Shown piece by piece: positions 34,161-63,609 of a stretch of DNA of 64,000 nucleotides. Origin of the DNA: Ochromonas danica. Taxonomy: Eukaryota > Sar > Chrysophyceae > Chromulinales > Chromulinaceae. Both the position numbers and the translations under genes were made by a program. Location: positions 24,893-88,892 of the forward strand of contig VKHL01000119.1 in assembly GCA_015146655.1 (NCBI GenBank). Reading direction: 5' to 3'. The notes below the pieces were generated by a model, which did not search any database, was not told where the DNA came from, and worked only from the letters and a program-made list of their open reading frames with translations. Numbering within the stretch: position 1 is the stretch's first letter; every line of letters begins with the position of its first letter.

Positions 34161-35174
34161 ATGAAGCTGACTTTGTTCTCTTTGTTCATTCTAGCTCATG
34201 TGGTATTCTGCCTCGGAGGGAAAACTCTATGGTTTATGGCCACACAGACTGCTCATGCTTCATACCTTTCTTTCGTTAAAGCTGCACTAAATTCCATGTT
34301 GCTCCGGCATTCTGATCAGCTCTACCCTGTCCTTATGCTGGGTGGAGGAAGAACCCATCAAAATGTGACTCTACCCGATTGGCTGACCAAACTAACGAAA
34401 TCTGGCAAGATCCTCATTCTCCATCGTAACTTGACATTTGTGGATCAAGATGTCATCAACAAGTACCCCATTCTCAATCATCCCGCTTTCCTTCGTTTGG
34501 ATATTCCTACCATAGTGCCCGAGTTGGCTAAGACACTTCCTCGTTCTCTGAAGTCCAAAATAGACTTCGACTATGCTCTTTACACAGATTGTGACGTCTT
34601 ATTCTACCCTTCCTTCAACTTGAATGAGTTACCAAAGCCCAAAGTGATCTCACTAGGAGGAGAGATGACGAAAGATGAAATGGCTAATTCTGGTGTGCTT
34701 TACATGAACATAAAGGCCATGAGGAAGCATATGGCTGGCTTCATTGAGCATGGGAAGACAGCTAACTTCACATTCGATGTATATGATCAGGGCTATATAC
34801 TTTCTTATTTCAGAGATAAGCTTCACGTGGCAGAACTTCTTCCTGCAACTTTCAATTGGAAGCCCTATTGGGGGAATTCCAACAAGACTGCAATTCTGCA
34901 TTTCCATGGCCCAAAGCCAGGGCGTTCTGCTAATTGCTTTTCTAACATGGACAGCAATGGATGTGATAGTCCAATTGTGTCAAAATGTGTAGGGACGCGT
35001 ATATATGTGGACATATGCAAATACATCACGAACCTGTACCATGTTTCTTCGGATGATATGTCGCTCTCATATGCAAGTGCATTGAGATTATTTCATCACA
35101 TGGTCTCGTTGGATGTCACTCAGAAGCAGCAAATGAAAAAGCACAATTCTATTTATGGATCGTGGCTATATTAG
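34161..35174 (+). CDS. GT8-like glycosyltransferase, array copy A1
   Basis: 337 residues. Signal peptide MKLTLFSLFILAHVVFCLG. GT-A features: DxD in YTDCDVLF (D143, D145), NSGVLYMNIKAM, YDQGYILSYF, NWKPYWG, and HFHGPKP (about 247-253), the GT8 H-x-G-x-K-P type metal/phosphate motif. Predicted to work in the ER/Golgi lumen on secreted glycans; the sugar and acceptor are unknown. C-terminal Cys residues (NCFSNMDSNGCDS) are conserved in all copies and probably form disulphides. From 34424 on it is nearly identical to the broken copy A2. The segment around GGGRTHQNVTLP is shared only with A7, 26 kb away. Confidence 0.8.
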   Translation: MKLTLFSLFILAHVVFCLGGKTLWFMATQTAHASYLSFVKAALNSMLLRHSDQLYPVLMLGGGRTHQNVTLPDWLTKLTKSGKILILHRNLTFVDQDVINKYPILNHPAFLRLDIPTIVPELAKTLPRSLKSKIDFDYALYTDCDVLFYPSFNLNELPKPKVISLGGEMTKDEMANSGVLYMNIKAMRKHMAGFIEHGKTANFTFDVYDQGYILSYFRDKLHVAELLPATFNWKPYWGNSNKTAILHFHGPKPGRSANCFSNMDSNGCDSPIVSKCVGTRIYVDICKYITNLYHVSSDDMSLSYASALRLFHHMVSLDVTQKQQMKKHNSIYGSWLY

Positions 35175-36362
35175 TGCATTGTGGCAGCAGTTCTGAGGGA
35201 AGTGTTCATTAGAACCCTTTAGTCATTCAGTCCTTGATGTACAGTTCTTCCAGTTGTTAGCATATATGCACTGTCGTAGTTGCAAAAACTTGTTAGTATA
35301 CAACTTAGATCAGTAGATCGATATTGTTGTAGTAGTGGTTGTTAATCAATTTTAGAATGACACAATATAGGTCATGTAGCATATTTTTGGTATGGATTGG
35401 CCCTTTCCTGCTTGTCGGTTGTATATCGCGGCGAGGTTGATTGTTTCCATTTTCTCCATAGTCATGATATAATAACAGATTTTGTAACTGTAATTAGAGC
35501 CTGAATGCATAACTAAATTCACATTGCAATTCAAGTACGCAGTAAGGAGAAGGTGAATGACAAAGAGAAGATGAGGAAGAGTGAGGTAGAGATGGTCAAG
35601 AGTGAAAGGGAGAAGGAGGAGGAGATAGAGGCAGGTGTACATGACCATCCTTGTCCCGATGTTGTGGAGGGTGGGTGAGTATGGTGGTGGAGATGTTGTT
35701 ATGCGCAGAAGAGATGATAGAGGAAGCGTTGTCATGGAGGAAGAGAAGTTAAGTGTAGTTGTGAATCCCATGTGGGATTTCGATGTGATGTGAAAGGAGA
35801 TGGTAATAGTAGTAGAGCAGTAGTGAGGAGCAGCTTGGATGTCAGTTCCAATTCTACTCCTAATAATAGCGTGCATTGTTGTTCTCCATATATTTCTCCT
35901 GCTGCTTCAGCTTCTTCTTTGTCGTCATCTTCACCCCGTTCCTCCTCGCTGTGCTTCTCTTCGGGCGACTATGTGTTCCGAGTCGCTAATAAGAGGAGTA
36001 AGAGGGCCCCTAAATGGGGGTAGGTTGTAGTTAAGTTGGCGTTCCTTGATGAGGACAGCACCCCATCAGATTTTAACAATAAGAAACGCTGGTTATCATA
36101 ATGAGAGTAGGCCGCTACATCTTGGAAACAGGCTAAATCGGGGAATCTACCGTTGATTTTCAGTTAGTGTTTGTTTTTTCGCTGTCGCTGACCGCCGCTG
36201 GATTCCCATTCCCGTGAAGATAAGTTCACCACCTCTCCTAGTTTATTCATCATAACTAAAGGATTTAGAGCTTGTTTCTCTCTCTGCAAACAATCCTCTC
36301 CTAACAGACCCGTAACCGGGACACCGAGTCTTGTGGCATATCCAGAATTCATCCTCTAACCG
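35175..36362. other. Spacer A1-A2
   Basis: The A1 3' flank (35327-35540) matches the A2 3' flank at 38422-38550 (GTTGTTAATCAA, GAGGTTGATTGTT, AATAACAGAT), showing that the A1/A2 duplication included downstream DNA. ORFs at 35772-36023 and 36164-36352 are not supported as genes. Confidence 0.5.
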
Positions 36363-39101: not shown

Positions 39102-40250
39102 ATGCTATTCTCTTTCTGGATGTTGTCATTATCATTATTATCCTTCTTATTGTTATCTACTTACCTACCATCTTCTCTAGGTTCTTTGATATGGAATTTA
39201 GATCCAAATAAAATCATGCCTACTATTCTTGTCCTACCATCACCTCATAGCAATTCAATTTCATCTGCTGCTTGTGATCCTACCCGCGCCGGCGATCATG
39301 ATCAAGACCGACTCTTCTATTGTTTCTTTCTCTATCATTACTCCCATACTATCACAAATATCACATCCCATAGAAAAGCGGATTTTTTCTTCTTTCCTGC
39401 CATTGGTTCGAATAAACAATCTTCTTGGAAACAACTTGATGGATTTCTACATAATTTCACAATGAATCACCCTCTAGCACAAGAAGCTCATTTCAATCTG
39501 GATAAGACCTTCTGTGTTAACACTTTTCCCTTGGAAACATTTGGTTTACATCATATCAATGTGCTTCGATATGCACAAGATATTCATCATTTCCGATCAG
39601 ACTATATGCTCACTCCGAATGGTCGTGATGTCTTTATTCCCTATGTTACAGCGCCTCCAGCAAGATCCAACGATCTCATGATTAATGACGATCTGCTTGG
39701 TCGGCGCAAGCACGTGCTCATGGCTCCATTGCGGGAATGTCCTGGGCGTGGAGAGCTGTACCGTCTCTTCCGCACTCGACTCTATTCTCACCTGAAGTCA
39801 CTACATCTCGAGAAGGCTCTCATCTCGAACAATATGACGTCGGTGGAGTTCGATGAAGGGATGGAAAACTCTTTGTTCTGTCTGATCTTACCTGGTGATA
39901 CCCCATCAACGGCTAAAGTGTATAAGGCGATCTTCCGAGGTTGTATCCCCGTCATCTTCGTGAGCTTTCCAGCCCAGCTTCCTTTCTACCAATTTATTGA
40001 TTGGTCTTCTTTCTCTTTGATCTTCTACAAGGATGACATTAACTATCCTCGTAAGATCGATGGCATTGTTGAGACGATCTATAGTTTGAGTAGGAATGTG
40101 GATGAGTTGAAGAGAATGCGTGTTTCGATGGCTAAGCATGCAGTGTTATTTGACTACAGTCGATGGGAGTGGCCTAGTGTGTATCATTTGTCTCTATTGT
40201 CACTACAGGCAGTAGTTTTCCGTGGTAGCAAGTTGATGTCTAATAACTAA
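39102..40250 (+). CDS. GT47 exostosin-like glycosyltransferase, array copy B1
   Basis: 382 residues with a Leu-rich signal peptide or anchor (about residues 1-27). The exostosin-domain core is SLFCLILPGDTPSTAKVYK followed by RGCIPVIFVS (about residues 256-288), the nucleotide-sugar-binding part of GT47. Upstream conserved blocks are FYCFFLYHYS, FNLDKTFCVNTFPLET and NGRDVFIPYV. Predicted Golgi transferase; specificity unknown. N-terminally closest to B2, but its C-terminal segment (DDINYPRKIDG) matches B4 rather than B2. Confidence 0.8.
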   Translation: MLFSFWMLSLSLLSFLLLSTYLPSSLGSLIWNLDPNKIMPTILVLPSPHSNSISSAACDPTRAGDHDQDRLFYCFFLYHYSHTITNITSHRKADFFFFPAIGSNKQSSWKQLDGFLHNFTMNHPLAQEAHFNLDKTFCVNTFPLETFGLHHINVLRYAQDIHHFRSDYMLTPNGRDVFIPYVTAPPARSNDLMINDDLLGRRKHVLMAPLRECPGRGELYRLFRTRLYSHLKSLHLEKALISNNMTSVEFDEGMENSLFCLILPGDTPSTAKVYKAIFRGCIPVIFVSFPAQLPFYQFIDWSSFSLIFYKDDINYPRKIDGIVETIYSLSRNVDELKRMRVSMAKHAVLFDYSRWEWPSVYHLSLLSLQAVVFRGSKLMSNN

Positions 40251-41551: not shown

Positions 41552-42562
41552 ATGAAGCTGAATTTGTTCTCTTTGTTCATTCTGGCTAAAATAGTAGAGT
41601 GTGTTGGGAAAAAGACTCTGTGGTTTATGGCCACACAGACTACCCATGCTACATATCTTGCCTATATTAAAGCTGCGCTAAATTCTGTGTTGTTACGACA
41701 TTCTCATCAACTCTACCCTGTCCTTATATTGAGTGGAAGCCATCAAAATGTGACTCTACCCGATTGGCTGACCAAACTGGCCGAATCTGGCAAGATACTC
41801 ATTGTCCATCGTAACTTGACATTTGTGGATCAAGAGGTCATTCAGAAGTATCCTATTCTGAATCATCCCGCTTTCCTTCGTTTAGATATTCCTACCATAG
41901 TGCCCGAGTTGGCTAAGACACTTCCTCGTTCTCTGAAGTCCAAAATAGACTTCGACTATGCTCTTTACACAGATTGTGACGTCTTATTCTACCCTTCCTT
42001 CAACTTGAATGAGTTACCAAAGCCCAAAGTGATCTCACTAGGAGGAGAGATGACGAAAGATGAAATGGCTAATTCTGGTGTGCTTTACATGAACATAAAG
42101 GCCATGAGGAAGCATATGGCTGATTTCATCAAGCATGGGAAGACAGCTAACTATGAATTCGGCGCATATGACCAGGGCTATATACTTTCTTATTTCAGGC
42201 ACAAGCTTCATGTGGCAGAACTTCTTCCTGCAACTTTCAATTGGAAGCCCTATTGGGGGAATTCCAACAAGACTGCAATTTTGCATTTCCATGGCCCAAA
42301 ACCAGGGCTGTTAGCAGAATGTTTTGCATTCATGGACAACGATGGTTGTGATAGTCCAAGTATGGCAAAATGCGTGGGCGGAGCTGAAGTGTATTTACAC
42401 ATCTGCAGGTTTGGTAGAGACAAATGCCATGTCTCTATTCATGATATGTCACTCTCATATGCAAATGTGTTGAGAATTTTTTATCACTTGATCACCTTCG
42501 ATTCGGTTGATAAAGCCCATGTGCACTTGGCTGAGAGTTCCAATTGCAGATATCGTGGATGA
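41552..42562 (+). CDS. GT8-like glycosyltransferase, array copy A3
   Basis: 336 residues, same architecture as A1: signal peptide (MKLNLFSLFILAKIVECVG), YTDCDVLF, NSGVLYMNIKAMRKHM, YDQGYILSYFRHK, HFHGPKP. Bases 41877-42122 are identical to A2 and nearly so to A1, whereas the N-terminal region and the C-terminal MDNDGCDSPSMAKCVGG segment group with A4 and A7: a mosaic. Intact. Preceded by module M1 and B1, and followed by B2. Confidence 0.82.
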   Translation: MKLNLFSLFILAKIVECVGKKTLWFMATQTTHATYLAYIKAALNSVLLRHSHQLYPVLILSGSHQNVTLPDWLTKLAESGKILIVHRNLTFVDQEVIQKYPILNHPAFLRLDIPTIVPELAKTLPRSLKSKIDFDYALYTDCDVLFYPSFNLNELPKPKVISLGGEMTKDEMANSGVLYMNIKAMRKHMADFIKHGKTANYEFGAYDQGYILSYFRHKLHVAELLPATFNWKPYWGNSNKTAILHFHGPKPGLLAECFAFMDNDGCDSPSMAKCVGGAEVYLHICRFGRDKCHVSIHDMSLSYANVLRIFYHLITFDSVDKAHVHLAESSNCRYRG

Positions 42563-43014: not shown

Positions 43015-44175
43015 ATGCTATCTTTCTGGTCGTCGTTGTTATTTTGTTTGTTGTCATTATTCTTATTATTTGCTTCGCTGCCATACTCTTTAGGCTCTTT
43101 GATATGGGAAGTAGAATATAACAATAAATTCATGCCCACCGTTCTTGTCCTGCCGCCCCTTCATACGGATTTAATTCCATCTGCTGCTTGCGATAATCCC
43201 ACCGTCCTGAGCGAGCACGATCAAGACATAGTCTTCTACTGCTTCTTTCTCCATCATTATTCCCGTTCTATTTTCACAAACATCACATCGCATAGGAAGG
43301 TTGATCTTTTCTTCTTACCTGCTATGGGTTTTAAGTATTCATTACCTTTTTGGCAGGAGCATGATGACTTTCTTCATAATTTCACGATGAATCACTCTCT
43401 AGCCAAGGAAACTAATTTCAATCTGGATAAGACCTTCTGTATTGACACTTTTCCATTGGAAACGGTCCATTTACATCACGTCAATGAGCTTCGATATGTG
43501 CAAGATATTCATCATTTCCGATCAGATTTTATGCTCACTCCGAATGGTCGTGATGTCTTTATTCCCTATTTAACAAAGCCTCCAGCAAGGTTTAATGATC
43601 TCATGAGTAATGACGATCTGCTTGGTCGACGGAAATACGTGCTCATGGCTCCATTGCGGGAATGTCCTGGGCTTGGAGAGGTGCGCCGTCTCTTCCGCAC
43701 TCGACTCTATTCTCACCTGAAGTCACTACATCTCGAGAAGGCTCTCATCTCGAACAATATGACGTCGGTGGAGTTCGATGAAGGGATGGAAAACTCTTTG
43801 TTCTGTCTGATCTTACCTGGTGATACGCCGGGTACTGCCAAAGTGTATAAGGCGATCTTCCGAGGTTGTATTCCCGTCATCTTCGTGAGCTTTCCAGCCC
43901 AGCTTCCTTTCTACCAGTTCATCGATTGGTCTTCTTTCTCGTTGATCTTCTATAAGGATGACTTGAACTATCCTGACAAGATCGATGGTATTGTGCAGAC
44001 GATCTATAACATGAGTAGGAATGTGGCTGAGTTAAAGAGGATGCGTGTTTCACTGGCTAAGCATGCAGTGTTATTTGACTACAGTCATTGGGAGTGGCCT
44101 AGTGTGTATCATTTGTCTTTATTATCGTTGCAGATGTTGAATCACCATGGCAGCAAGTTTATTACTAATAATTAG
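43015..44175 (+). CDS. GT47 exostosin-like glycosyltransferase, array copy B2
   Basis: 386 residues; signal peptide or anchor rich in Leu (residues 1-28, ending YSLGSLIW). Blocks VFYCFFLHHYS, FNLDKTFCIDTFPLET, NGRDVFIPYLT, then the exostosin core SLFCLILPGDTPGTAKVYK and RGCIPVIFVS. The N-terminal two thirds resemble B1. From about 43870 to 44085 the DNA is identical to B3 (DDLNYPDKIDGIVQTIYNM), pointing to conversion between B2 and B3. Full-length compared with B1, B3 and B4. Confidence 0.82.
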   Translation: MLSFWSSLLFCLLSLFLLFASLPYSLGSLIWEVEYNNKFMPTVLVLPPLHTDLIPSAACDNPTVLSEHDQDIVFYCFFLHHYSRSIFTNITSHRKVDLFFLPAMGFKYSLPFWQEHDDFLHNFTMNHSLAKETNFNLDKTFCIDTFPLETVHLHHVNELRYVQDIHHFRSDFMLTPNGRDVFIPYLTKPPARFNDLMSNDDLLGRRKYVLMAPLRECPGLGEVRRLFRTRLYSHLKSLHLEKALISNNMTSVEFDEGMENSLFCLILPGDTPGTAKVYKAIFRGCIPVIFVSFPAQLPFYQFIDWSSFSLIFYKDDLNYPDKIDGIVQTIYNMSRNVAELKRMRVSLAKHAVLFDYSHWEWPSVYHLSLLSLQMLNHHGSKFITNN

Positions 44176-45314: not shown

Positions 45315-46313
45315 ATGAAGATGACTTTGCTCTTTGTTTTGATTCTTCATCTTGTGGCAGAATGTGTTGGGAAAAAGACTCTTTGGTTTATGGCCACAAA
45401 AAATACCCATGCTTCATACCTTACCTACATTAAAGCTGCCCTGACCTCTGTGTTGCTACTGCGGCATTCTGATCAGCTCTACCCTGTCCTTATGCTGGGT
45501 GGAATCCATCAAAATACTGCTCTACCCGATTGGCTGACCAAACTGGCCGAATCTGATAAGATACTCATTCTCCACCATAAGTTGACATTTGTGGATCGAG
45601 AGGTCATTCACAAGTATCCCATTCTCAATCATCCCGCTTTCCTTCGTTTAGATATTCCTACCATAGTGCCCGAGTTGGCTAAGACACTTCCTCGTTCTCT
45701 GAGGTCCACGATCAACTTCGACTATGCTCTTTACACAGATTGTGACGTCTTATTCTACCCTTCCTTCAACTTGAATGAGTTACCAAAGCCCAAAGTGATC
45801 TCACTAGGAGGAGAGATGACGAAAGATGAAATGGCTAATTCTGGTGTGCTTTACATCAACATATCAGCAATGAATGAGCATATGGTTGGTTTCATTGAGC
45901 ATGGGAAGAAAGCTAACTTTGAATTCGGCGCATATGACCAGGGCTATATACTTTCTTATTTCAGAGATAAGCTTCACGTGGCAGAACTTCTTCCTGCAGC
46001 TTTCAATTGGAAGCCCTATTGGGGGAATTCCAACAAAACTGCAATTTTGCATTTTCATGGTCCAAAGCCAGCAATGTTTGCAGAGTGTTTTGCATTCATG
46101 GGCAACGATGGTTGTGATAGTCCAAGTATGTTGAAATGTATGACTGGAGCTGATCCTTTCCTAAATATCTGCAGGTTCGGCAGAGACAAATGCCATGTCT
46201 CTATTCATGATATGTCACTCTCATATGCAACTGCTTTGAGAATCTTTTATCACCTGATCACCTTTGATTTGGCTGAGAAAGCCAATCTGCACAATGGCGT
46301 GACCCACAGATAA
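45315..46313 (+). CDS. GT8-like glycosyltransferase, array copy A4
   Basis: 332 residues, signal peptide MKMTLLFVLILHLVAECVG. Catalytic signature YTDCDVLF, NSGVLYINISAMNEHM, YDQGYILSYF, NWKPYWG, HFHGPKP. The central DNA block through GTGCTTTACAT is identical to A1-A3, but it then diverges (INISAMNEHMVGF), marking the edge of a shared tract. C-terminal FMGNDGCDSPSMLKCMTGA groups with A5/A6. Intact. Confidence 0.82.
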   Translation: MKMTLLFVLILHLVAECVGKKTLWFMATKNTHASYLTYIKAALTSVLLLRHSDQLYPVLMLGGIHQNTALPDWLTKLAESDKILILHHKLTFVDREVIHKYPILNHPAFLRLDIPTIVPELAKTLPRSLRSTINFDYALYTDCDVLFYPSFNLNELPKPKVISLGGEMTKDEMANSGVLYINISAMNEHMVGFIEHGKKANFEFGAYDQGYILSYFRDKLHVAELLPAAFNWKPYWGNSNKTAILHFHGPKPAMFAECFAFMGNDGCDSPSMLKCMTGADPFLNICRFGRDKCHVSIHDMSLSYATALRIFYHLITFDLAEKANLHNGVTHR

Positions 46314-46786: not shown

Positions 46787-47040
46787 GTCCGAACTTCAAT
46801 CAGGTGGTATTCTCTCTCATAACCATATTCTTCCCTTCTTTTGGTAAATGAAATACTACTTAAGACAAAGGGGACGTAAAATGACCCCAGAGCTTGTGCC
46901 TTGATCGATAGAGCCAATTATCTCCACCAATATCCCAGGGAAGGTAATGAAAACGAACCTCGTTTCCGATCAGGAAGATTCTGAAAATATTCTCCATCAA
47001 AGAAGATGTAGTCTAATCAAATCAATTCAAACATCATCGT
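46787..47040. repeat. Intergenic module M3 (upstream of an A relic)
   Basis: Carries GACAAAGGGGACGTAAAATG, AGCCAATTATCTCCACCAAT, AACCTCGTTTCCGATCAGGA and TCAAAGAAGATGTAGTCTAA in the order of M1 and M2. Confidence 0.7.
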
Positions 47041-52084: not shown

Positions 52085-52715
52085 CTTACTGCAAACGAAG
52101 AAAGCTAACAGGAAAAGAGTCTGGGTGCAAGATGCATTAGCCACTGGATCGTGACTCAAATTATGCTTCGAAATAACGATATACTGACGTAAAGCAGTAT
52201 TTCATTCACCAAAAAGAAGAGGAGAGTATGGCGTAGAGATGAAATCATCCATTCCTTGAGTGCTTTTCACCTTGCAGAATCGGCTATGATATGCAAACCG
52301 TAGTCATTAAAGCTTGGGCACGCACCAGCAAAGTTCTACGTAGCTCCATGGTTAAAGGGGAATCAATTTCTCCTAAATTAAGACAAAGAGAACGCAAAAT
52401 GACCCCAGCTGATATCTCGATCAAAAGAATCAATTAGTCTAGTCATATTACACCAATATCTCGAGGAAGACAAAGAGAATGAACCTCGTTCCGATTAACG
52501 AGATTCTCCATCAAAGCAGATGAAATCAAATTAATACAAATCCGATTCAAAAATTGATGCATAATAAATTTGCATCAAAAGTTATCGACAAAAAGCACTT
52601 CCAGATTTGGGCACGAAATTCCACCGCCCGTGGAAAAACAAAATGAAACGCCTTTGAGGTTTTTCTATCACGAGATACGACTTTCAACTCAATTTATATT
52701 ACTTCTGGCTGATAA
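52085..52715. repeat. Intergenic module M4 without its GT8 gene
   Basis: Collinear with M2: GAAAGCTAACAG, ACGATATACTGACGTAAAGC, GAGTGCTTTTCACC, CCGTAGTCATTAAAGCTT, TCAATTTCTCCTAAATTAAG, AACCTCGTTCCGATTAACGA. It ends with the TACGACTTTCAACTC...CTTCTGGCTGATA stretch seen just before A3. No A-type coding follows. Confidence 0.75.
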
Positions 52716-52771
52716 GCAAAGAAAATTATGATCTGTTTGCTTTCATTATTTCTTATCTAGGCTTCCTACTT

Positions 52772-52988
52772 TGTGAAGAGAGAGAAGAAACAATGCGATG
52801 TGGTCAAGATTGGGGTGGGAGGAAGTGAAGAAGGTGGAGAGGGTGAGATAAAGTCTCCATCTTCCTCGTCATCTTCCTGTTTGCCTTGTTCCCCTTCTTC
52901 TTGTTCATGATGATGTGAATGGTTTTTATATAATCACTTGCTGAGCTACAACTAGTTTCCTCTTTTGAAGGAGTGGCAAGAAGACTTG
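52772..52988. repeat. 217-bp direct repeat, left copy
   Basis: From TGTGAAGAGAGAGAAGAAAC to GAGTGGCAAGAAGACTTG, matching 55804-56020 with about 15 differences and no length change. The two copies bracket the minus-strand gene at 53995-55350. Confidence 0.9.
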
Positions 52989-53994: not shown

Positions 53995-55350
53995 TTACTT
54001 GGCATCTGAAAGAGAAAGGGTTTTTCCTCGTTGCATGACATACAAATGATATCTTGGAATCTTCTCGATGATATCCTTTTTTTGAAAACCTAAGGCTTGC
54101 ATGATCACTGTATTGGTCACCTTGTAATACGTACCATTCAGCGAATAGAATAAATGACTCCAGCCGTTGGCCCGAAACAATATGTTGCTGGGCAAGACCA
54201 GCATCTGATACAGCAGAGTGGCGGGCTGGCCGTACCAATCCAATGTTCGAGTGTGAATAGCCATATCTTTACATATACGAGAGTGACGTTTATAGGTAGA
54301 TTCTAAGCCTTCCCAGAAATAGGAGCTATTATTCACAAACTCTGAAAGTCCACATATCTTCTCATCAGACTTCGAACGATTGTTGAATGGGCGAGGGCAA
54401 ACAGAGGTAGCATTTGGTAAATCAAAATAGGCTATAATATATCTCTTGTCAACAGATGATCGCATGCAATCTGCAGGACGGTACACAGGCAACGAACCTA
54501 TCCATGCTTCAGCAAAGAATCGCCCAGTACCAATGCACCAATTATCATAAAACACGAAATCCTTTGGAGTGATGATGGTAGTAGAATTTTTGAGATGGGC
54601 AGGAACAGGGATTTTGAGTTTCTTGTAGGTATTGATCAAGAAAGTGGCATTCTTCCAGACCGCAGACGCGAACTCCTTTGGAGAGATGGTAGTAGAATTG
54701 GTGAGATGGGCAGGAAGAGGTATTTTGAGTTGCTTATGGGTGTTGATCAAGAAAGTGACATTTTTCCAGACCACAGCGGGGTCAATCAATTTGTTGATAT
54801 GATTGCAAGTTGACCACCAGAAGTTGCCAGAGTAATGGAGAAATGGGAGAGGGGCAAAGCGCATACCACAGGTGTCATAGTCATCGAGTACGGAAAGGCA
54901 GTCAGGTGATAGCACAAAACAGTCGAGTAACTGGCGAACTTTTTCATTTTCTGGAGTTGGGTGAAAGCTGCCCTTATTATGGAAATAGAGAATCTTCACG
55001 TCGCTACCAGAGCCAGCACCAGATGAAGAAGATTGCTTGTCATGTTCTTGGCAATAGTCGTAGACCAACTTTAAGGTCTGTACCTCATTGCCATGCCTGC
55101 CGTGATTCTTGTAGAGAGAATATTTACTGCCTGAGAAAGAGACATTTCGATTCGCGGAACCTACGACAGTGTAATAGATATGATCGAGATGGTCATAGAG
55201 ACCACTGTCATTGATGACCTTAGCTTGTGCATGCACAATGCTATTAAAATGAGTGCCACTTGTGAAGATGTGCCAGAATGCAATGGCCTTGCCCCAACAT
55301 AGTAATGGAAATGTTAAGAAAATTAGGAAAGCAACGATCCAAGCCGCCAT
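53995..55350 (-). CDS. Secreted glycosyltransferase-like protein, family uncertain
   Basis: 451 residues from the ATG at 55350; upstream codons in frame lack an ATG. Signal peptide or anchor MAAWIVAFLIFLTFPLLCWG. Conserved-looking blocks are ILYFHNKGSFHPTPENE, DTCGMRFAPLPFLHYSGNF followed by WWSTCNHIN, and VFYDNWCIGTGRFFAEAWIG. The GNFWW-type segment occurs in algal and viral proteins near glycosyltransferases, but I cannot name the family. Many N-glycosylation sequons (NVTF, NSTT, NNSS). Residues around VWKNVTFLINT repeat in tandem about 39 residues apart. The stop lies over a gtaagt, so a further small 3' exon is possible. Confidence 0.65.
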   Translation of the reverse strand: MAAWIVAFLIFLTFPLLCWGKAIAFWHIFTSGTHFNSIVHAQAKVINDSGLYDHLDHIYYTVVGSANRNVSFSGSKYSLYKNHGRHGNEVQTLKLVYDYCQEHDKQSSSSGAGSGSDVKILYFHNKGSFHPTPENEKVRQLLDCFVLSPDCLSVLDDYDTCGMRFAPLPFLHYSGNFWWSTCNHINKLIDPAVVWKNVTFLINTHKQLKIPLPAHLTNSTTISPKEFASAVWKNATFLINTYKKLKIPVPAHLKNSTTIITPKDFVFYDNWCIGTGRFFAEAWIGSLPVYRPADCMRSSVDKRYIIAYFDLPNATSVCPRPFNNRSKSDEKICGLSEFVNNSSYFWEGLESTYKRHSRICKDMAIHTRTLDWYGQPATLLYQMLVLPSNILFRANGWSHLFYSLNGTYYKVTNTVIMQALGFQKKDIIEKIPRYHLYVMQRGKTLSLSDAK

Positions 55351-55803
55351 GTAGATCTGCTTGAAATCCGGGCGCAAGTCTGAAGTCCGGCAAGCGCCAA
55401 ATTGCAAGTTCGTGGTTCTCCAATATGCGCGGGATTTGAAACCCAAAGTTAACTTAACAAATGATTAACTTAAGATGAGGAGCCAGGGAGGGGAGGCAGT
55501 GGTCATGGAGATGATGAATGAAGAAGGAAAGGAAAGTGTGGAAAAAGAGGAGGAGACGTGGACGATTGTAACATCCATAAAGAAATGGAAGTGACTACCT
55601 TGAGCGTTTACTCCTTAGGTTAAATTTTGGAAAACAATCGATCCAGCAGCAGCAGCAAGCATCGACAACCTGATCAAGACGATCTCTTCTTCTCCCCTTC
55701 CATCAAATCCATGCAGGAGGTGCTGGCTGACTTGAAACAATGCAAAGGTCAATTAACCAAGTCACATTATTTTCAAGCTTTCCTGAAAGTCTTTTCTGTA
55801 CCT
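55351..55803. other. Spacer with an ORF fragment
   Basis: An open frame from 55627 runs into the 217-bp repeat and stops at 55860. It encodes HRQPDQDDLFFSPSIKSM and LTKSHYFQAFLKVFSVP, which look protein-like but have no ATG or family, so it may be an exon relic. Confidence 0.3.
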
Positions 55804-56020
55804 TGTGAAGAGAGAGAAGAAACAATGCGATGCGATCAAGATTGGGGTGGGAGGAAGTGAAGAAGGTGGAGAGGGTGAGATAAAGTCTCCATCTTCCTCG
55901 TCATCTTCCTGTTTGCCTTGTTCCCCTTCCTCTTGTTCTTGATGATATGAGTGGTAGTTGTATAATGACTTGATGAGCTACTACTAGTTTCCTGTTTTGA
56001 AGGAGTGGCAAGAAGACTTG
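55804..56020. repeat. 217-bp direct repeat, right copy
   Basis: Partner of 52772-52988, same orientation. Confidence 0.9.
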
Positions 56021-56195
56021 CGCGAAGCTACAGATGTTATCCACGTCATTGTTTTAGCATTATGGATCATCAGTCATTGTTAGAAGAAAGGATTGGTGTG
56101 GCTCCCCTAAATATCGAGATGTGCCTTTCAAATTGCACATAAGACGTGCGCACCCAAAAGGCAACGAAAAGCGCAAAGATCTCATGGAAAATTGC

Positions 56196-56310
56196 GTGGA
56201 AGCCGTCAAAATGCAATTCTACCCGATTGGCTGACCACACTAGTCAGTGACTATGTTCCAATTGCAGGATGCATAAAGTGTCTTAGGTGTGGTCATTTTG
56301 AGGGCTTTTG
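56196..56310 (+). pseudogene. Internally deleted GT8-like relic
   Basis: GTGGAAGCCGTCAAAATG and TACCCGATTGGCTGACCA match the A genes around residues 60-75 (compare 41735-41785). The sequence then jumps directly to A-type 3' flank (TTCCAATTGCAGGATGCATA, TCATTTTGAGGGC). Most of the gene, including the catalytic centre, is missing. Confidence 0.7.
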
Positions 56311-56328: not shown

Positions 56329-57987
56329 GATAGAAAGGCTTTCTAGAACAGACAATTGTTAGATTTACCTTTCCATTCTTGTTAGGCTACAGATCTTTTC
56401 CGTTATTGTGATGGTGGATGCCTTTTTGCTTTTATTGTTGGTTGACAATTTGACAATTAATTAGCCTTGAAAAGAGATTTCTTTCTATTCCACTTTTGGT
56501 AACCAACAAAGCAAAAGTGTTATTCAATCAAACTGTAAACTATCAAAACATCAGATTGTCATAGTAAGGTTATGATTGTGGGTCGAGATCCTCTTAGACT
56601 TGTTTGGTGTTTATTGACTTGTTCTTGCTGAGAACTTGATTGGAGGGGTCAGTGGTGGACAGCGGAGTGACGCAGTGCAGCTGGTGCTGCTGCTCCTTCA
56701 CGCACTTCGCCACACCCCGCCACGCACCGAACCAACACCACAACAGAGGACGGACATCAACAACAAACCAGTGCCACACCTCAATTGGCCTGCTGTGACC
56801 GACAGATGAAGCTGACTTTGCTCTTTGTTTCGATTCTTCATCTTGTGGTAGGATGTGTTGGGAAAAAGACTCTGTGGTTTATGGCCACCGAAAATACCCA
56901 TGCTTCATACCTTGCCTATATTAAAGCTGCCCTGGCCTCTGTGTTACTGTGGCATTCTCATCAGCTCTACCCTGTCCTTATCTTGAGTGGAGGTGGTCAA
57001 CATGCTGCTCTACCCGAGTTGCTGACCAAACTGGCCGAAGCTGGCAAGATCCTCATTCTCCATCGTAACTTGACATTTGTTGATCAAGAGGTCATCAACA
57101 AGTATCCCATTCTCAATCATCCCGCTTTCCTTCGTTTGGAAATTCCTACAATAGTGCCCGAGTTGGCTAAGACACTTCCTCGTTCTCTGAAGTCCAATAT
57201 AGACTTCGACTATGCTCTTTACACCGATTGTGACGTCTTATTCTACCCCTCCTTCAACATAAATGAGTTACCAAAGCCCAAAGTGCTCTCATTAGGAGGA
57301 GAGCACACGAAAGACGAAATGGCTAATTCTGGTGTGCTTTACATGAATATAAAAGCTATGAAGGAGCATATGGCTGGTTTCGTCAAGCACGGGAAGAAGG
57401 CTAACTTCACGTTCACACGCGAGGCTTGGGAACAGAACTATATACTTTCTTATTTCAGAGACAAGCTTAAAGTCACTCAACTTCTCCCTGCAACTTACAA
57501 TTGGAAGGCTTATTGGGGGGATTCCAACAAAACTGCAATTCTGCATTTCCATGGCCCAAAGCCAGGTGCGTTTGCAGAATGTTTTGCATTCATGGACAAC
57601 GATGGGTGTGATAGTCCAAGTATGCTGAAATGTATGACTGGACCTGGTGCTTACTTGAATATCTGCCATTTCGCCAGAGACAAAGGCAAAGTCCCTTTTC
57701 ATGTTATGTCACTCTCATATGCAAATGCGTTGAAATTCTTTTATCGGATGATCACCTTAGATTTGACTGACAAAGGTCATGAGCACCTTGCCATGACGCA
57801 GAGATAAAGTTCCAATTGCAGATATTGTGGATGATATCCATAGAACGTATTCTATTTGATCATTGCGAGGCTATAAGAGCATTCTCCTGTATTAATTGTT
57901 AGATAATCGCGGCCTTGCAGTAATTGATGTACTTGTTGCTTCGTTCAACATTTACCTTTGAAGACGAGCTCCCTCCTTCTCCATTTT
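56329..57987. repeat. Segmental tandem duplication, left unit
   Basis: Contains A5 plus about 475 bases upstream and 180 downstream. The right unit 58108-59750 is nearly identical apart from small indels in the leader region (56655-56780). Confidence 0.9.
56806..57807 (+). CDS. GT8-like glycosyltransferase, array copy A5
   Basis: 333 residues; signal peptide MKLTLLFVSILHLVVGCVG. YTDCDVLF, NSGVLYMNIKAMKEHM, NYILSYFRDK, NWKAYWG, HFHGPKP. Differs from A1-A4 by LRLEIPTIVPE, GGEHTKDE, a two-residue insertion before NYILSYF (TREAWEQ in place of VYDQG), and a C-terminus ending in HEHLAMTQR. The mature sequence is identical to A6. Intact. Confidence 0.82.
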   Translation: MKLTLLFVSILHLVVGCVGKKTLWFMATENTHASYLAYIKAALASVLLWHSHQLYPVLILSGGGQHAALPELLTKLAEAGKILILHRNLTFVDQEVINKYPILNHPAFLRLEIPTIVPELAKTLPRSLKSNIDFDYALYTDCDVLFYPSFNINELPKPKVLSLGGEHTKDEMANSGVLYMNIKAMKEHMAGFVKHGKKANFTFTREAWEQNYILSYFRDKLKVTQLLPATYNWKAYWGDSNKTAILHFHGPKPGAFAECFAFMDNDGCDSPSMLKCMTGPGAYLNICHFARDKGKVPFHVMSLSYANALKFFYRMITLDLTDKGHEHLAMTQR

Positions 57988-58569: not shown

Positions 58570-59750
58570 ATGAAGCCGACTTTGCTCTTTGTTTTGATTC
58601 TTCATCTTGTGGTGGGATGTGTTGGGAAAAAGACTCTGTGGTTTATGGCCACCGAAAATACCCATGCTTCATACCTTGCCTATATTAAAGCTGCCCTGGC
58701 CTCTGTGTTACTGTGGCATTCTCATCAGCTCTACCCTGTCCTTATCTTGAGTGGAGGTGGTCAACATGCTGCTCTACCCGAGTTGCTGACCAAACTGGCC
58801 GAAGCTGGCAAGATCCTCATTCTCCATCGTAACTTGACATTTGTTGATCAAGAGGTCATCAACAAGTATCCCATTCTCAATCATCCCGCTTTCCTTCGTT
58901 TGGAAATTCCTACAATAGTGCCCGAGTTGGCTAAGACACTTCCTCGTTCTCTGAAGTCCAATATAGACTTCGACTATGCTCTTTACACCGATTGTGACGT
59001 CTTATTCTACCCCTCCTTCAACATAAATGAGTTACCAAAGCCCAAAGTGCTCTCATTAGGAGGAGAGCACACGAAAGACGAAATGGCTAATTCTGGTGTG
59101 CTTTACATGAATATAAAAGCTATGAAGGAGCATATGGCTGGTTTCGTCAAGCACGGGAAGAAGGCTAACTTCACGTTCACACGCGAGGCTTGGGAACAGA
59201 ACTATATACTTTCTTATTTCAGAGACAAGCTTAAAGTCACTCAACTTCTCCCTGCAACTTACAATTGGAAGGCTTATTGGGGGGATTCCAACAAAACTGC
59301 AATTCTGCATTTCCATGGCCCAAAGCCAGGTGCGTTTGCAGAATGTTTTGCATTCATGGACAACGATGGGTGTGATAGTCCAAGTATGCTGAAATGTATG
59401 ACTGGACCTGGTGCTTACTTGAATATCTGCCATTTCGCCAGAGACAAAGGCAAAGTCCCTTTTCATGTTATGTCACTCTCATATGCAAATGCGTTGAAAT
59501 TCTTTTATCGGATGATCACCTTAGATTTGACTGACAAAGGTCATGAGCACCTTGCCATGACGCAGAGATAAAGTTCCAATTGCAGATATTGTGGATGATA
59601 TCCATAGAACGTATTCTATTTGATCATTGCGAGGCTATAAGAGCATTCTCCTGTATTAATTGTTAGATAATCGCGGCCTTGCAGTAATTGATGTACTTGT
59701 TGCTTCGTTTAACATTTACCTTTGAAGACGAGCTCCCTCCTTCTCCATTT
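58108..59750. repeat. Segmental tandem duplication, right unit
   Basis: Partner of 56329-57987; homology ends near CTCCCTCCTTCTCCATTTT, after which the two flanks differ. Confidence 0.9.
58570..59571 (+). CDS. GT8-like glycosyltransferase, array copy A6
   Basis: 333 residues; differs from A5 only in the signal peptide (MKPTLLFVLILHLVVGCVG), otherwise the same protein including YTDCDVLF and HFHGPKP. The near-perfect match over coding and flanking DNA shows a very recent tandem duplication or an assembly duplicate; the small leader indels favour a real duplication. Confidence 0.82.
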   Translation: MKPTLLFVLILHLVVGCVGKKTLWFMATENTHASYLAYIKAALASVLLWHSHQLYPVLILSGGGQHAALPELLTKLAEAGKILILHRNLTFVDQEVINKYPILNHPAFLRLEIPTIVPELAKTLPRSLKSNIDFDYALYTDCDVLFYPSFNINELPKPKVLSLGGEHTKDEMANSGVLYMNIKAMKEHMAGFVKHGKKANFTFTREAWEQNYILSYFRDKLKVTQLLPATYNWKAYWGDSNKTAILHFHGPKPGAFAECFAFMDNDGCDSPSMLKCMTGPGAYLNICHFARDKGKVPFHVMSLSYANALKFFYRMITLDLTDKGHEHLAMTQR

Positions 59751-60343: not shown

Positions 60344-61303
60344 ATGAAGCTGACTTTGCTCTTTGTTTTGATTCTTCATCTTGTAGCTGGATGTGTTGGG
60401 AAAAAGACTCTGTGGTTTATGGCCACGGGAATTCCTCATGCTTTTCATCTTACTTACATTAAAGCTGTGCTAAACTCTGTGCTGCCGCGGCATTCTGATC
60501 AGCTCTACCCTGTCCTTATGCTGGGTGGAGGAAGAACCCATCAAAATGTGACTCTACCCGATTGGCTGACCAAACTAACGAAATCTGGCAAGATACTCAT
60601 TGTCCATCGTAACTTGACATTTGTGGATCAAGAGGTCATCAACAAGTATCCCATTCTGAATCATCCCGCTTTCCTTCGTTTGGAAATTCCTACAATAGTG
60701 CCCGAGTTGGCTCAAACACTTCCTTCTTCTCTGAGGTCCAATATAGACTTCGACTATGCTCTTTACACAGATTGTGACGTCTTATTCTACCCTTCCTTCA
60801 ACTTGAATGAGTTACCAAAGCCCAAAGTGATCTCATTAGGAGGAGAGATGACAAAAGTGGATATGGCAAATTCTGGTGTGCTTTACATGAATATTAAGGC
60901 CATGGGGAAGCATATGGAAGGTTTCATCAAACACGGGAAGAAAGGAAACTTTACATTTGAGGCATATGATCCGGGCTATATTATTTCTTATTTCAGAGAC
61001 AAGGTTCACGTGGCTGAACGTCTCCCTGCAACTTACAATTGGAAGCCCTATTGGGGGGACTCCAACAAAACTGCAATTCTGCATTTCCATGGCCCAAAGC
61101 CAGGTCTGTCAGCAGATTGTTTTGCATTCATGGACAACGATGGTTGTGATAGTTTAAGTATGGTGAAGTGTGTGGGTGGAGCTAAAGCTTACTTGAATAT
61201 CTGCAAGTTCGCCAGAGACAAAGGCAAAGTCCCTGTTCATGATATGTCACTCTCATATACTAATGCGTTGAAATTCTTTTATCGCATGATCAACTTGGAG
61301 TAG
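60344..61303 (+). CDS. GT8-like glycosyltransferase, array copy A7
   Basis: 319 residues, signal peptide MKLTLLFVLILHLVAGCVG. YTDCDVLF, NSGVLYMNIKAMGKHM, YDPGYIISYF (Pro replaces the usual Gln), NWKPYWG, HFHGPKP. A stretch of about 80 bases encoding GGGRTHQNVTLPDWLTKL is identical to A1, while LRLEIPTIVPE matches A5/A6 and the C-terminal part mixes A3 and A5 features. It ends 14-20 residues earlier than its paralogues through a tag stop after INLE. Confidence 0.8.
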   Translation: MKLTLLFVLILHLVAGCVGKKTLWFMATGIPHAFHLTYIKAVLNSVLPRHSDQLYPVLMLGGGRTHQNVTLPDWLTKLTKSGKILIVHRNLTFVDQEVINKYPILNHPAFLRLEIPTIVPELAQTLPSSLRSNIDFDYALYTDCDVLFYPSFNLNELPKPKVISLGGEMTKVDMANSGVLYMNIKAMGKHMEGFIKHGKKGNFTFEAYDPGYIISYFRDKVHVAERLPATYNWKPYWGDSNKTAILHFHGPKPGLSADCFAFMDNDGCDSLSMVKCVGGAKAYLNICKFARDKGKVPVHDMSLSYTNALKFFYRMINLE

Positions 61304-61683
61304 GCTGATAAATCCCGTGGCTGATAGATAACGTTCCAATTGCAGATATTGCTGATGATATGCATAATAGAGTGCATTCTGTTTTGATCATTTTGACGGT
61401 CTCTAGAACATACTATTGTGTTAATTATTAGATTTACGCTACTGGTCTCGTAATTTTGTTATTGCTGTAATTAATTTACTGGTTGTTTTGGTTAACACTT
61501 GCCTTGGTAAAAGGTTTCCATTTTTACCAAATAGGAAACAACCTCACTTTTGTGATATTAGGTTTGAAAATAATGTTCCAACTGCAGATATCGTAGCCAA
61601 TATGGGTAGAGTGCCGTTCTAGCTAATATGGTAATTTGATTTTAGGGGCTTGAGAGGATTGAGAGGCTTTCTATTTAGAAAAT
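61304..61683. other. A7 3' flank
   Basis: Shares AATTGCAGATATTG, GATGATATGCATAA and TCATTTTGA words with the 3' flanks of A3, A5 and A6. Confidence 0.5.
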
Positions 61684-61776
61684 AAGAATTTGACTCTGCA
61701 ATTTGGAGCACTGACCAAATCTCTGGAACTGCGCACTTTGGTGGTCTCACTTGAAGCAACGTATTCTGATGTTTAA
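61684..61776 (+). pseudogene. 3' relic of the GT2/GT92-like gene, opposite strand
   Basis: Translates to KNLTLQFGALTKSL then ELRTLVVSLEATYSDV and a taa stop, matching the last 30 residues of the gene at 62362-63609 (KNLTQRFRALSKSL, ELRDLVVSLEAKYSDV). The match continues about 15 bases past the stop. The copy is inverted, so an earlier tail-to-tail duplication is implied. Confidence 0.85.
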
Positions 61777-62361
61777 ATCAGCTTTCTACTTACGTGTGTA
61801 AGCGGCGCTATAATTTAGCCTTATCAAATATTGAACTCTCCAAAGGAGCGTTCATTACTGTCAACCTCTTCTACTAGCTATAGCAACTGTCGTCAACTGC
61901 TTCTTAGTTGTTCCATATCCGCAAATGAACGCAACCAACTATTATTATCAATAATTTAAGGTGTCCAATAATTTAAGTTATAAGTCTTCTTTATTGCTGT
62001 GGAATTCTCTGTCAAGCCTGTTCTATTGTGTGATATTGAACAGTGAAGCACAACTGCTTTAATTGAGTATAGCAGCTCTGAATGATACACATTACGGATT
62101 AGATCTACCCAAATGGAAGAAATCGATCTGCTGCATCTACGAAAAGTGGAGCAAGAGGAAAGTTATAGTGTGAAATATTATAGCGACAATTAGATCATTA
62201 CATGAGCGATCAATAATTACTAGGCATCTGCTTAAGCAAGTATGAGGTGTGGATATGTTAAAACAAATGAGTAAAAGAAGTTAGAAAATGTTACTGATGA
62301 TTTTCAGTTAGTTGAATGTTGTTCTTGCATGGATAGCAATGAATGCGAGTAGAAAACTGAT
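61777..62361. other. Spacer between the relic and the GT2/GT92-like gene
   Basis: 585 bases, no supported feature. Confidence 0.4.
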
Positions 62362-63609
62362 TTAAACATCAGAATACTTTGCTTCAAGTGAGACCACCAA
62401 ATCGCGCAGTTCCAGAGATTTGCTCAGTGCTCGAAATCGCTGAGTCAAATTCTTATAGTATGAACTTTCAAACCCTGATGGGTCTGTTATATAGATATAG
62501 TATTCAAGGACCTTGTGAGCACTTACAACGCCGCGATTTACTACGAGAGCAAGCTTAGCAATTTGTTGTTGCACCGTATCGCTTGGCGATATAAAACCGT
62601 GTGACAAGAGTGCCTTCTTAGAATTTTCAATATCCCCTTGCATGCAACCATAGTGGCCGTGTAGAATAGACAGGCCTGGCACATTTCGATAACAGGGCTT
62701 TCCAGGAGAACAAGATGCTCCAGGAGCAAGAACATTATCAAACTCAGAATGGAAATTTCCATTGTGGCCGCCCAAATCAATCGCCAACAACGAAGCTGTC
62801 GGATGAACAGTCTTATATGACGTGGGAACGAAACATGAATGAGAGAGTGAGACAAAGATAGGTCCACGATCGCGAACTGAGGGATCTTCACATAATGCTC
62901 TCTCTGGTATAGTCCTAGAGACAAAATTTATTTTCGCCATGACGCCATCATAGATGACTGCACTTAGGTTGTCCAGAACATTGTCAAACGAAATCTTCTG
63001 TTTCTCTTGATCATAATGAACCAAGAACTCATCAGTGTCCACCTTGATAATATAATCATAACGAAACACAAGCTCCTTAGTGGCGAGATCGGTTATCTCC
63101 TTCTCTAGAAAGTTCAGATTCGCATTTGTCTCGAAGAGATTCAATCCTTTCTTGTCTCGCATGGCGTGGAGGAAGTTGATGCACCGACGATCATTACTAC
63201 CGTCGAACACATACAAGTTCTTGAAGCCGAACTTGTCACCATGATAGAGCACCCAGTGCTTTATCAGGGGCCATTCATCCTTCGTCATCATAGTGAAGGC
63301 CACCACAGACAATCCTCCATGAGACTTCTTCCCCTCATAAAGTCCCTTGCTCACCCAATGGTCATAGGCAGAGACATTTTGAGTGATGACACTCTTACCA
63401 TAGTTAGCCATATAGAACTTTTCATCGAAGAGTTCAAATCTGCGATTGTGAGGATTGGCAAAATAACGATAAGGACGAGAGAAGTGCTGATCATGACTTT
63501 GATTCTGATTCAACAATTTTGATTTTTCTTTTGATTGACGATCTGTTACTATCTTTAAATCTGCTTCAACTCGAAGAAAGAACAAGAAGAGGAGGTAAAC
63601 AAACTTCAT
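62362..63609 (-). CDS. GT2/GT92-like glycosyltransferase
   Basis: 415 residues from the ATG at 63609; signal peptide MKFVYLLFLFFLRVEA. The domain pattern is that of Glyco_tranf_2_4 (Pfam PF13704) and GT92 proteins: VVAFTMMTKDEWPLIKHWV, YHGDKFGFKNLYVFDGSND, and the metal site VDTDEFL. Later blocks are GGHNGNFHSEF and LHGHYGC. Predicted ER/Golgi enzyme; donor and acceptor unknown. Oriented against the array and probably its right-hand member. An inverted relic of its 3' end lies about 600 bases beyond its stop. Confidence 0.85.
   Translation of the reverse strand: MKFVYLLFLFFLRVEADLKIVTDRQSKEKSKLLNQNQSHDQHFSRPYRYFANPHNRRFELFDEKFYMANYGKSVITQNVSAYDHWVSKGLYEGKKSHGGLSVVAFTMMTKDEWPLIKHWVLYHGDKFGFKNLYVFDGSNDRRCINFLHAMRDKKGLNLFETNANLNFLEKEITDLATKELVFRYDYIIKVDTDEFLVHYDQEKQKISFDNVLDNLSAVIYDGVMAKINFVSRTIPERALCEDPSVRDRGPIFVSLSHSCFVPTSYKTVHPTASLLAIDLGGHNGNFHSEFDNVLAPGASCSPGKPCYRNVPGLSILHGHYGCMQGDIENSKKALLSHGFISPSDTVQQQIAKLALVVNRGVVSAHKVLEYYIYITDPSGFESSYYKNLTQRFRALSKSLELRDLVVSLEAKYSDV

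What the first reader, a model, noticed from the sequence alone, without database searches (positions are those of the whole stretch)
34161..63609. Array of alternating GT8-like and GT47 genes with further glycosyltransferases
Seven GT8-like copies (A1-A7), four GT47 copies (B1-B4), a GT2/GT92-like gene and a secreted glycosyltransferase-like gene occupy 30 kb with almost nothing else. Two unrelated catalytic families co-amplified side by side suggests a two-step glycan pathway that diversifies together, for example for a variable cell-surface or scale/wall polysaccharide. Function is inference; the array itself is directly visible.
Basis: partly seen in the sequence, partly recalled or inferred. 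Interest (0 to 1): 0.85.

Follow-up and report, generated by a model that had tools for sequence, protein, structure and literature searches.

The report
Algal sugar-transferase array under gene conversion
A stretch of what is probably an algal genome carries two unrelated families of sugar-attaching enzymes that were duplicated side by side, and copies have swapped DNA so that the catalytic core tends to stay alike while other parts have drifted apart.

Summary
The 29 kb contain six intact GT8-type genes (A1, A3-A7), one frameshifted copy (A2), a 70-base A relic, four GT47-family genes (B1-B4), one GT2-type gene (D), and a gene (C) of a glycosyltransferase-like family without a Pfam hit. A has no Pfam glycosyltransferase hit alone; in an alignment with 25 bacterial relatives, 22 of 30 members hit PF01501. 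A and B are unrelated. B1-A3 and B2-A4 are colinear B-spacer-A blocks, so the two families were amplified together at least once; A5/A6 and B3/B4 are single-gene tandem copies. Silent divergence is low over the catalytic core of both families. B codons 301-375 support a different tree from the rest of the gene (AU p = 0.006, limits chosen after the fact), so partial gene conversion is well supported in B, and in A for one pair. dN/dS is 0.3-0.6, with no sign of diversifying selection. My reading is a secretory-pathway glycan locus evolving by birth-and-death plus conversion of catalytic cores. A constant-donor, variable-acceptor system is possible but untested. Organism, expression, substrates and linkage in other eukaryotes could not be tested.

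The parts
34161..35174 (+). A1, intact GT8-type gene, 337 aa, N-terminal signal-peptide-like segment
36363..37332 (+). A2, frameshifted copy closest to A1 (94% DNA identity)
39102..40250 (+). B1, GT47 (PF03016), 382 aa
40966..41287 (.). spacer repeat X copy 1, between B1 and A3
41552..42562 (+). A3, intact GT8-type gene
43015..44175 (+). B2, GT47 (PF03016), 386 aa
44583..45054 (.). spacer repeat X copy 2, between B2 and A4
45315..46313 (+). A4, intact GT8-type gene
46860..47031 (.). spacer repeat X copy 3 (partial), between A4 and B3
48558..49763 (+). B3, GT47 (PF03016), 401 aa
50319..51500 (+). B4, GT47-family paralogue, tandem copy of B3 (not itself scanned with Pfam)
52136..52551 (.). spacer repeat X copy 4, after B4
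52767..52988 (.). 222-base repeat on one side of C, 94% identical to 55799-56020
53995..55350 (-). C, GT-A-like glycosyltransferase-like gene (HxKG ... HYSGNFWW family), 451 aa from the first methionine
55799..56020 (.). 222-base repeat on the other side of C
56190..56260 (+). relic of an A gene
56806..57807 (+). A5, intact GT8-type gene
58570..59571 (+). A6, intact GT8-type gene, protein 99.4% identical to A5
60344..61303 (+). A7, intact GT8-type gene
61682..61790 (+). inverted relic of the 3' end of D
62362..63609 (-). D, GT2-type gene (PF13704), 415 aa

Best explanation
This is a lineage-specific glycosyltransferase locus of a nuclear genome, probably of an alga with a plastid. Two unrelated families, a GT8 (A; retaining by recall of CAZy) and a GT47 exostosin (B; inverting), grew by duplication of a B-spacer-A block of about 3.8 kb and by single-gene tandem duplication (A1/A2, A5/A6/A7, B3/B4), with losses leaving relics. 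Partial gene conversion between copies keeps the catalytic core alike: in A roughly codons 81-190, which hold the DxD motif; in B codons 241-375, taken to be the C-terminal donor-binding half of the GT-B fold. The N-terminal part of B and both ends of A diverge. The enzymes most likely enter the secretory pathway and act in the ER/Golgi lumen on one glycan, with A and B adding different sugars. Shown: the families, the copies, one block duplication. Well supported: conversion in B, and in A for one pair. Inferred: secretory targeting, a shared pathway, a shared donor with differing acceptors, and a cell-surface or secreted polysaccharide as the product.
For: Families: B meets PF03016 (E 5e-21 to 2e-17, above cut-off, in the 3 of 4 copies scanned). 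A has 60 bacterial relatives among 84 pattern matches, best 1e-28; 22 of 30 members of an alignment of 5 window and 25 bacterial proteins hit PF01501 at E 0.01; its profile hits PDB 5gvv (deposited as glycosyl transferase family 8) 2.3e-15, LgtC 5.8e-10, Skp1 galactosyltransferase 2.4e-4. DxD, NWKxYW and HxHxxK columns are invariant in 30 of 30. A and B profiles are unrelated (hhalign probability 0.2%). Secretion: in the six intact A copies the N-terminus is by far the most hydrophobic stretch (15-residue mean 2.0-2.8 against 1.0-1.2 elsewhere), likewise the most hydrophobic in B1, B2 and C, barely in D; about 24 of the 34 bacterial frames printed begin within a few residues of the first strand, without it (counted by eye). 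Block duplication: B1-X-A3 and B2-X-A4 are colinear. Conversion: mean dS in A is 0.12 at codons 121-180 against 0.47 at 1-60 and 0.61 at 241-300; B2-B3 dS is 0 at 301-360 but 1.4-2.9 or saturated over 1-180. Longest identical run never reached in 2000 shuffles for 3 of 10 A pairs and 2 of 6 B pairs; with silent codons only, 1 of 10 (A1-A3) and 1 of 6 (B2-B3). B codons 301-375 reject (B1,B2)(B3,B4) (AU 0.006, KH 0.019), while the four other segments reject (B2,B3) (AU 0.0002-0.013). pS is lower at 241-375 than at 1-240 in 6 of 6 B pairs.
Against: Segment limits were chosen, and no test was corrected for the number of pairs, so p-values are optimistic. For A the silent-only test supports just A1-A3; the A1-A7 exchange suggested by all sites is not supported by silent codons (1083 of 2000 shuffles reach it). 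In one search codons 46-85 favour A1-A7 over A1-A3 (0.022) but do not exclude A1-A6 (0.07), and the A1-A3 grouping at 116-195 is only favoured (0.065). Heterogeneity of silent variation along A is modest (139 of 5000 shuffles). Pairs A4-A6 and A4-A7 show no clear core-specific reduction. The homogenised A segment covers only part of the donor site, and codons 191-255 are conserved in protein but not at silent sites. No segment has mean dN above mean dS, so nothing shows that the variable parts are selected for new acceptors. Secretion rests on a hydropathy average, not a trained predictor; for B3 (1.75) and B4 (1.71) the N-terminus is no more hydrophobic than an internal stretch (1.71). No expression, chemistry or eukaryotic comparison was available, and the AlphaFold model of A1 failed (pLDDT 34).
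Confidence: 0.6

Rival explanations
1. Redundant copies: neutral birth-and-death raises dosage of two enzymes; conversion simply reflects where the sequences stayed similar enough to pair, and the variable parts drift under weaker constraint without new function.
For: dN/dS 0.31-0.57 across pairs and no segment with mean dN above mean dS; one frameshifted copy and two relics; A5 and A6 almost identical.
Against: Six A and four B copies keep open frames and the DxD or exostosin core, and A1 differs strongly from the rest in its last 86 columns (pS 0.52-0.63, pN 0.29-0.36), which pure dosage does not need.
Confidence: 0.3
2. Low silent divergence in the cores reflects constraint on silent sites (codon use, RNA structure, overlapping gene) rather than conversion.
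For: The low-divergence segments coincide with the most conserved protein segments in both families.
Against: Constraint does not change tree topology: B codons 301-375 group B2 with B3, flanks group B1 with B2 (limits post hoc). The only frame of 140 aa or more antisense to a B gene listed lies at the start of B3, not in the core.
Confidence: 0.05
3. Part of the array is an assembly artefact (haplotypes or collapsed repeats placed in tandem).
For: The A5/A6 unit repeats at 94% over 1.8 kb, and A2 carries a frameshift.
Against: Apart from A5/A6, and A1/A2 which was not in the test, copies differ at about 0.23-0.73 silent substitutions per site and have different neighbours.
Confidence: 0.08
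4. The array makes a diversified surface glycan by pairing specific A and B copies as two-step partners, each B-A block being one pathway.
For: Colinear B1-X-A3 and B2-X-A4 blocks.
Against: Copy numbers are unequal (6 A, 4 B intact), A5-A7 lack a B neighbour, and 0 of 83 bacterial or viral A loci have a B-like neighbour.
Confidence: 0.15

Closest known systems
Vertebrate UGT1 cluster (variable first exons, shared constant exons)
   Same: GT-B enzymes in a tandem array; donor-binding C-terminal half constant, acceptor-binding N-terminal half variable (PMC1885805, passages seen)
   Different: UGT1 keeps the donor half constant by sharing exons, and its authors found no prevalent gene conversion except in the dog; here each intact A and B copy is a complete single open frame, conversion is visible, and a second unrelated family shows a partly similar pattern
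Trypanosomatid UDP-glycosyltransferase arrays (SCG/SCGR of Leishmania)
   Same: protist tandem array of glycosyltransferase genes with recombination between copies and no significant positive selection (PMC5853035, passages seen)
   Different: one family, partly subtelomeric expansion; here two unrelated families interleaved at one locus
Exostosin-like genes of raphid diatoms (Seminavis robusta)
   Same: seven exostosin-like proteins conserved in raphid diatoms, linked by the authors to extracellular polymers, in a genome rich in tandem duplicates (PMC7335047, passages seen)
   Different: no interleaved GT8/GT47 array in the passages seen; whether our window is a diatom is unknown
GT8 and GT47 of green and red algae
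   Same: algal members of both families (PMC3797821, passages seen)
   Different: the GT8s found there belong to the PGSIP6-8 clades and most GT8 and GT47 groups are reported missing; the A type was matched here only to bacterial and viral proteins, the collections searched holding no algae
Bacterial and phage GT8-like proteins of the A type
   Same: same catalytic motifs; 19-34% identity over the alignment to A3, phage matches similar
   Different: mostly without a signal peptide, one A-type frame per locus and no B-type neighbour within about 5-6 kb

Membership tests
GT8 (PF01501) for A | match to the GT8 profile | tested here: met
   met through relatives only: A1, A2, A3, A5 and A7 alone have no glycosyltransferase hit at E 1; 22 of 30 members of the joint alignment hit PF01501, best 4.6e-12; the joint profile, mostly bacterial rows, hits GT8 crystal structures, the window-only profile does not
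GT8 (PF01501) for A | DxD metal-binding motif and C-terminal HxxGxxKP-type motif | tested here: met
   invariant columns D141, D143, H245, H247, K250 in 30 of 30; meaning of the motifs recalled
GT8 (PF01501) for A | GT-A fold | tested here: inconclusive
   model of A1 failed, pLDDT 34
GT8 (PF01501) for A | retaining transfer of a nucleotide sugar | not testable with these tools
   needs an enzyme assay
GT47 (PF03016) for B | score above Pfam's cut-off | tested here: met
   63.7-75.6 bits against 33.4 for B1, B2, B3; B4 was not scanned but is about 62-74% identical to them. PDB profile search gave only weak exostosin matches, E 0.06
GT47 (PF03016) for B | inverting transfer, GT-B fold | not testable with these tools
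GT2-like (PF13704) for D | score above Pfam's cut-off | tested here: met
   34.7 bits against 27.5
Known Pfam glycosyltransferase family for C | match to a Pfam glycosyltransferase family | tested here: not met
   no Pfam hit at E 0.01 in 23 of 23 alignment members; no credible PDB sequence match
GT-A-like nucleotide-sugar transferase fold for C | GT-A-like fold | tested here: met
UGT1-like constant-donor/variable-acceptor system | donor half constant, acceptor half variable | tested here: inconclusive
   silent and protein divergence fit for B in 6 of 6 pairs; for A only partly; which half binds what was not modelled, substrates untested

The most novel reading that the evidence does not exclude
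Two unrelated glycosyltransferase families at one locus have independently reached a constant-donor, variable-acceptor state by core-directed gene conversion between complete genes. The locus would act as a reservoir of recombining enzymes that vary an algal surface glycan between strains, for example against viruses or grazers, without splicing or silent cassettes.
Probability: 0.15. Interest if true: 0.75.

Novelty: new variant of a known kind. Interest (0 to 1): 0.45.

Why it matters
Tandem glycosyltransferase arrays are known, but an interleaved array of two unrelated families in which silent sites point to conversion over the catalytic core is unusual. If strains differ in these copies, the locus would give a genetic handle on how algal surface glycans vary. 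It also places a GT8 subfamily, seen here otherwise only in bacterial and viral contigs (the collections searched hold no eukaryotes), and a glycosyltransferase-like family without a Pfam hit (C) in what is probably a eukaryotic secretory setting.

Tried and rejected
Own-genome search: no genome is held for this window, so copy number elsewhere and the organism's name could not be found. Viral scans with the window-only A and B alignments found no relatives; the deeper A alignment found 23 loci. D had no relative in the phage records or in the viral scan. PHROGs and NCBIfam gave no meaningful hit for the seven proteins tried. PDB sequence searches with the window-only A profile, C, D and the C alignment gave only chance hits or none. 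AlphaFold of A1 from six close rows failed, so A's variable regions could not be mapped on a structure. Horizontal transfer of A from bacteria was considered and left open: in the tree the algal rows form one group on a branch of 1.75 changes per column, beside one long-branched bacterial row (support 84/75) and phage rows; the tool warns that long branches meet, and no eukaryotic rows could be added. Positive selection was set aside because no segment has mean dN above mean dS (single pairs within segments and single sites were not tested). Linkage of A and C: 0 of 80 C loci carry an A-type frame and 0 of 83 A loci a C-type frame. Paper searches listed no title or abstract reporting an interleaved GT8/GT47 array or conversion mapped to donor halves. 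This covers only the open papers held, and lists were capped (15 of 104 shown, 8 of 66); of five papers I saw passages only. Rows dropped before counts: A2 (frameshift) from all codon tests; A5 (near-copy of A6); only the A5-A6 pair was left out of segment means; 2 of 83 short A matches, A2 and A5 from the tree; 35 of 60 bacterial A relatives from the alignment; 58 of 80 viral C loci from that.
Full report
What is there. (stop-to-stop frames, standard code) and searches give six intact A genes (A1, A3, A4, A5, A6, A7), four intact B genes (B1-B4), and C and D on the minus strand, in the order A1 A2 B1 A3 B2 A4 B3 B4 C (A relic) A5 A6 A7 D. The intact A and B genes are single open frames. A2 is broken: compared with A1 it has an 11-base and a 6-base deletion near its start and a 1-base insertion near its end, and the part matching the signal segment lies in a different frame from the rest. 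Relics of A (near 56190-56260) and of the 3' end of D (61682-61790) show turnover. Between the genes I found no Pfam domain (10 gap frames of my choice, 9 in the span), no tRNA and no Rfam match.

What kind of genome. The window holds an arginyl-tRNA synthetase, a protein kinase, a LIM protein and a glutamyl-tRNA reductase. By eye, two frames look like one SNF2 helicase split by an intron, and the reductase has a hydrophobic N-terminus. Tetrapyrrole synthesis through that enzyme in a nuclear genome points to a plastid; a signal-like N-terminus suggests a secondary plastid. This is inference, and the species is unknown.

Family A. The window A proteins scanned alone (A1, A2, A3, A5, A7) hit no Pfam glycosyltransferase. 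A genome-collection scan found 84 pattern matches, of which 60 encode relatives, all in records titled as bacteria (that collection holds only prokaryotes). In an alignment of 5 window and 25 bacterial proteins, 14 columns are invariant, including the two aspartates of DxD, NWKxYW and HxHxxK. 22 of the 30 members hit PF01501 at E 0.01, and the joint profile finds 5gvv (2.3e-15), LgtC (5.8e-10) and the Skp1 galactosyltransferase (2.4e-4). A further scan found 23 IMG/VR loci with relatives; the two I opened look like tailed phages (by eye). About 24 of the 34 bacterial frames printed begin within a few residues of the first strand (MKWYFA...), whereas the algal ones have about 19 mostly hydrophobic residues before KTLWFMAT (counted by eye, one printed frame, L006, being the wrong one): a likely secretory signal on a bacterial-type catalytic domain. 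The tree puts the algal rows on a branch of 1.75 changes per column and cannot decide the origin.

Family B. B1, B2 and B3 score 64-76 bits against PF03016 (cut-off 33.4); B4 is their paralogue. The PDB profile search gave only weak exostosin matches (E 0.06). GT47 has a GT-B fold (PMC9178029, passages); in GT-B enzymes such as UGTs the C-terminal half binds the donor (PMC1885805, passages). That this is B codons 241-375 is inferred from the position of the exostosin core, not modelled. A and B show no profile similarity.

How the array grew. B1-X-A3 and B2-X-A4 are colinear in four aligned pieces at about 3.6-3.9 kb offset. In a global alignment, gene bins are 77-94% identical, boundary bins 62-67% and spacer bins 34-63%, so in the spacer only X is convincingly shared. 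X, a repeat without a recognised protein, also occurs after A4 and about 640 bases after B4, upstream of C and the A relic, so one or two further B-X-A blocks may have existed; that is inference. A1/A2 (94%), A5/A6 (94% over 1.8 kb) and B3/B4 (84%) are single-gene tandem copies.

Conversion. Mean pairwise dS across A is 0.12 at codons 121-180 but 0.47 at 1-60 and 0.61 at 241-300; across B it is 0.20 at 301-360 but above 1 at 1-180 (one saturated pair left out of one B mean). Shuffling polymorphic columns, the longest identical run was never reached in 2000 tries for A1-A3, A1-A4, A1-A7 (3 of 10 A pairs) and B1-B2, B2-B3 (2 of 6). Using only silent codons of invariant residues, which removes protein constraint, A1-A3 (codons 118-216) and B2-B3 (306-369) remain at 0 of 2000, B1-B2 at 36 of 2000, A1-A4 at 140, and A1-A7 fails (1083 of 2000). 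Heterogeneity of silent variation along the gene was reached by 13 of 5000 shuffles for B and 139 of 5000 for A. Tree tests: B codons 301-375 support (B2,B3) and reject (B1,B2)(B3,B4) (AU 0.006, KH 0.019); codons 1-120, 121-240, 241-300 and 376-416 do the opposite (AU 0.0002-0.013 against B2-B3). In the A quartet, codons 1-45 reject (A1,A7) (0.004) while 46-85 favour it over (A1,A3) (0.022), with (A1,A6) not excluded (0.07). pS is lower at 241-375 than at 1-240 in 6 of 6 B pairs (95% intervals apart in 5, touching in B1-B2). In A it is lower at 81-190 than at 1-80 in 9 of 10 pairs, one of them by 0.01 only, and than at 256-341 in 7 of 10. Segment limits were set, and no correction for the number of tests was made.

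Function. Pairwise dN/dS is 0.33-0.56 in A (15 pairs) and 0.31-0.57 in B (6 pairs): the copies are constrained, hence probably active, and there is no sign of diversifying selection at this resolution. The N-terminus is clearly the most hydrophobic part of every intact A copy and of C, less clearly of B1 and B2; for B3, B4 and D the contrast is weak or absent. The most economical mechanism is a set of luminal enzymes acting on one secreted or surface glycan. The similarity to the vertebrate UGT1 logic (constant donor half, variable acceptor half; PMC1885805, passages) is good for B and partial for A, and would be reached by a different route, since that paper found no prevalent gene conversion in UGT1. 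Protist arrays of one glycosyltransferase family with recombination are known (PMC5853035, passages), so the kind is known; two unrelated families interleaved, with core-homogenised copies, is the variant.

Verdict. The array is real and unlikely to be mainly an artefact. Family labels stand, with A raised from 'GT8-like' to GT8 through its relatives. 'Co-amplified' stands for at least one block pair. 'Diversifies together' should be replaced by birth-and-death with conversion of the catalytic cores. The glycan product is unknown.

Noticed in passing
window 26240-29256 (-): Pieces of a further glycosyltransferase (PF11397, GlcNAc type, matched in the frames 26963-27493 and 28795-29256) just upstream of the array, apparently with introns.
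   Followed up: partly
window 15479-17638 (+): GT47-like protein with long poly-Pro/Gly runs, 30.6 bits, below Pfam's cut-off of 33.4, 24-28% identical to B copies over about 63-108 residues.
   Followed up: partly
window 12520-15088 (+): UPF0014 membrane domain followed in the same frame by the start of an ABC ATPase, with what looks like the rest of the ATPase in the next frame: possibly a fused FetB/FetA-type transporter (fusion judged by eye, names recalled).
   Followed up: no
window 52767-52988 and 55799-56020: 222-base repeats, 94% identical, flank gene C; no LTR-like ends seen by eye. Origin unexplained; they may mark how C entered the array.
   Followed up: partly
window 40966-41287, 44583-45054, 46860-47031, 52136-52551: Diverged repeat X, about 260 bases upstream of A3 and A4; could be a shared promoter region or a relic.
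   Followed up: partly
window 38828-38983, 46578-46668, 12329-12405: Long microsatellites: (CA)78 at 98% matches, (GTG)30 and (TAATC)15 perfect, plus many poly-Gly/poly-Pro codon runs in neighbouring genes.
   Followed up: no
L046 1879-7664: A bacterial contig (isolate YP1.bin78) carries an A-type GT8 with its own signal-like N-terminus beside frames that by eye look like other glycosyltransferases and methyltransferases; it is the algal rows' nearest neighbour in the tree, on a long branch. Resemblance to Dependentiae is my impression, untested.
   Followed up: partly
L141, L142: A-type GT8 genes lie among frames that by eye look like other glycosyltransferases and methyltransferases of tailed-phage-like contigs.
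   Followed up: no
L061-L140: The C family (HxKG, HYSGNFWW, about 210 aa) is common in IMG/VR contigs, is sometimes one part of a much longer frame, and none of 23 members scanned has a Pfam hit.
   Followed up: partly
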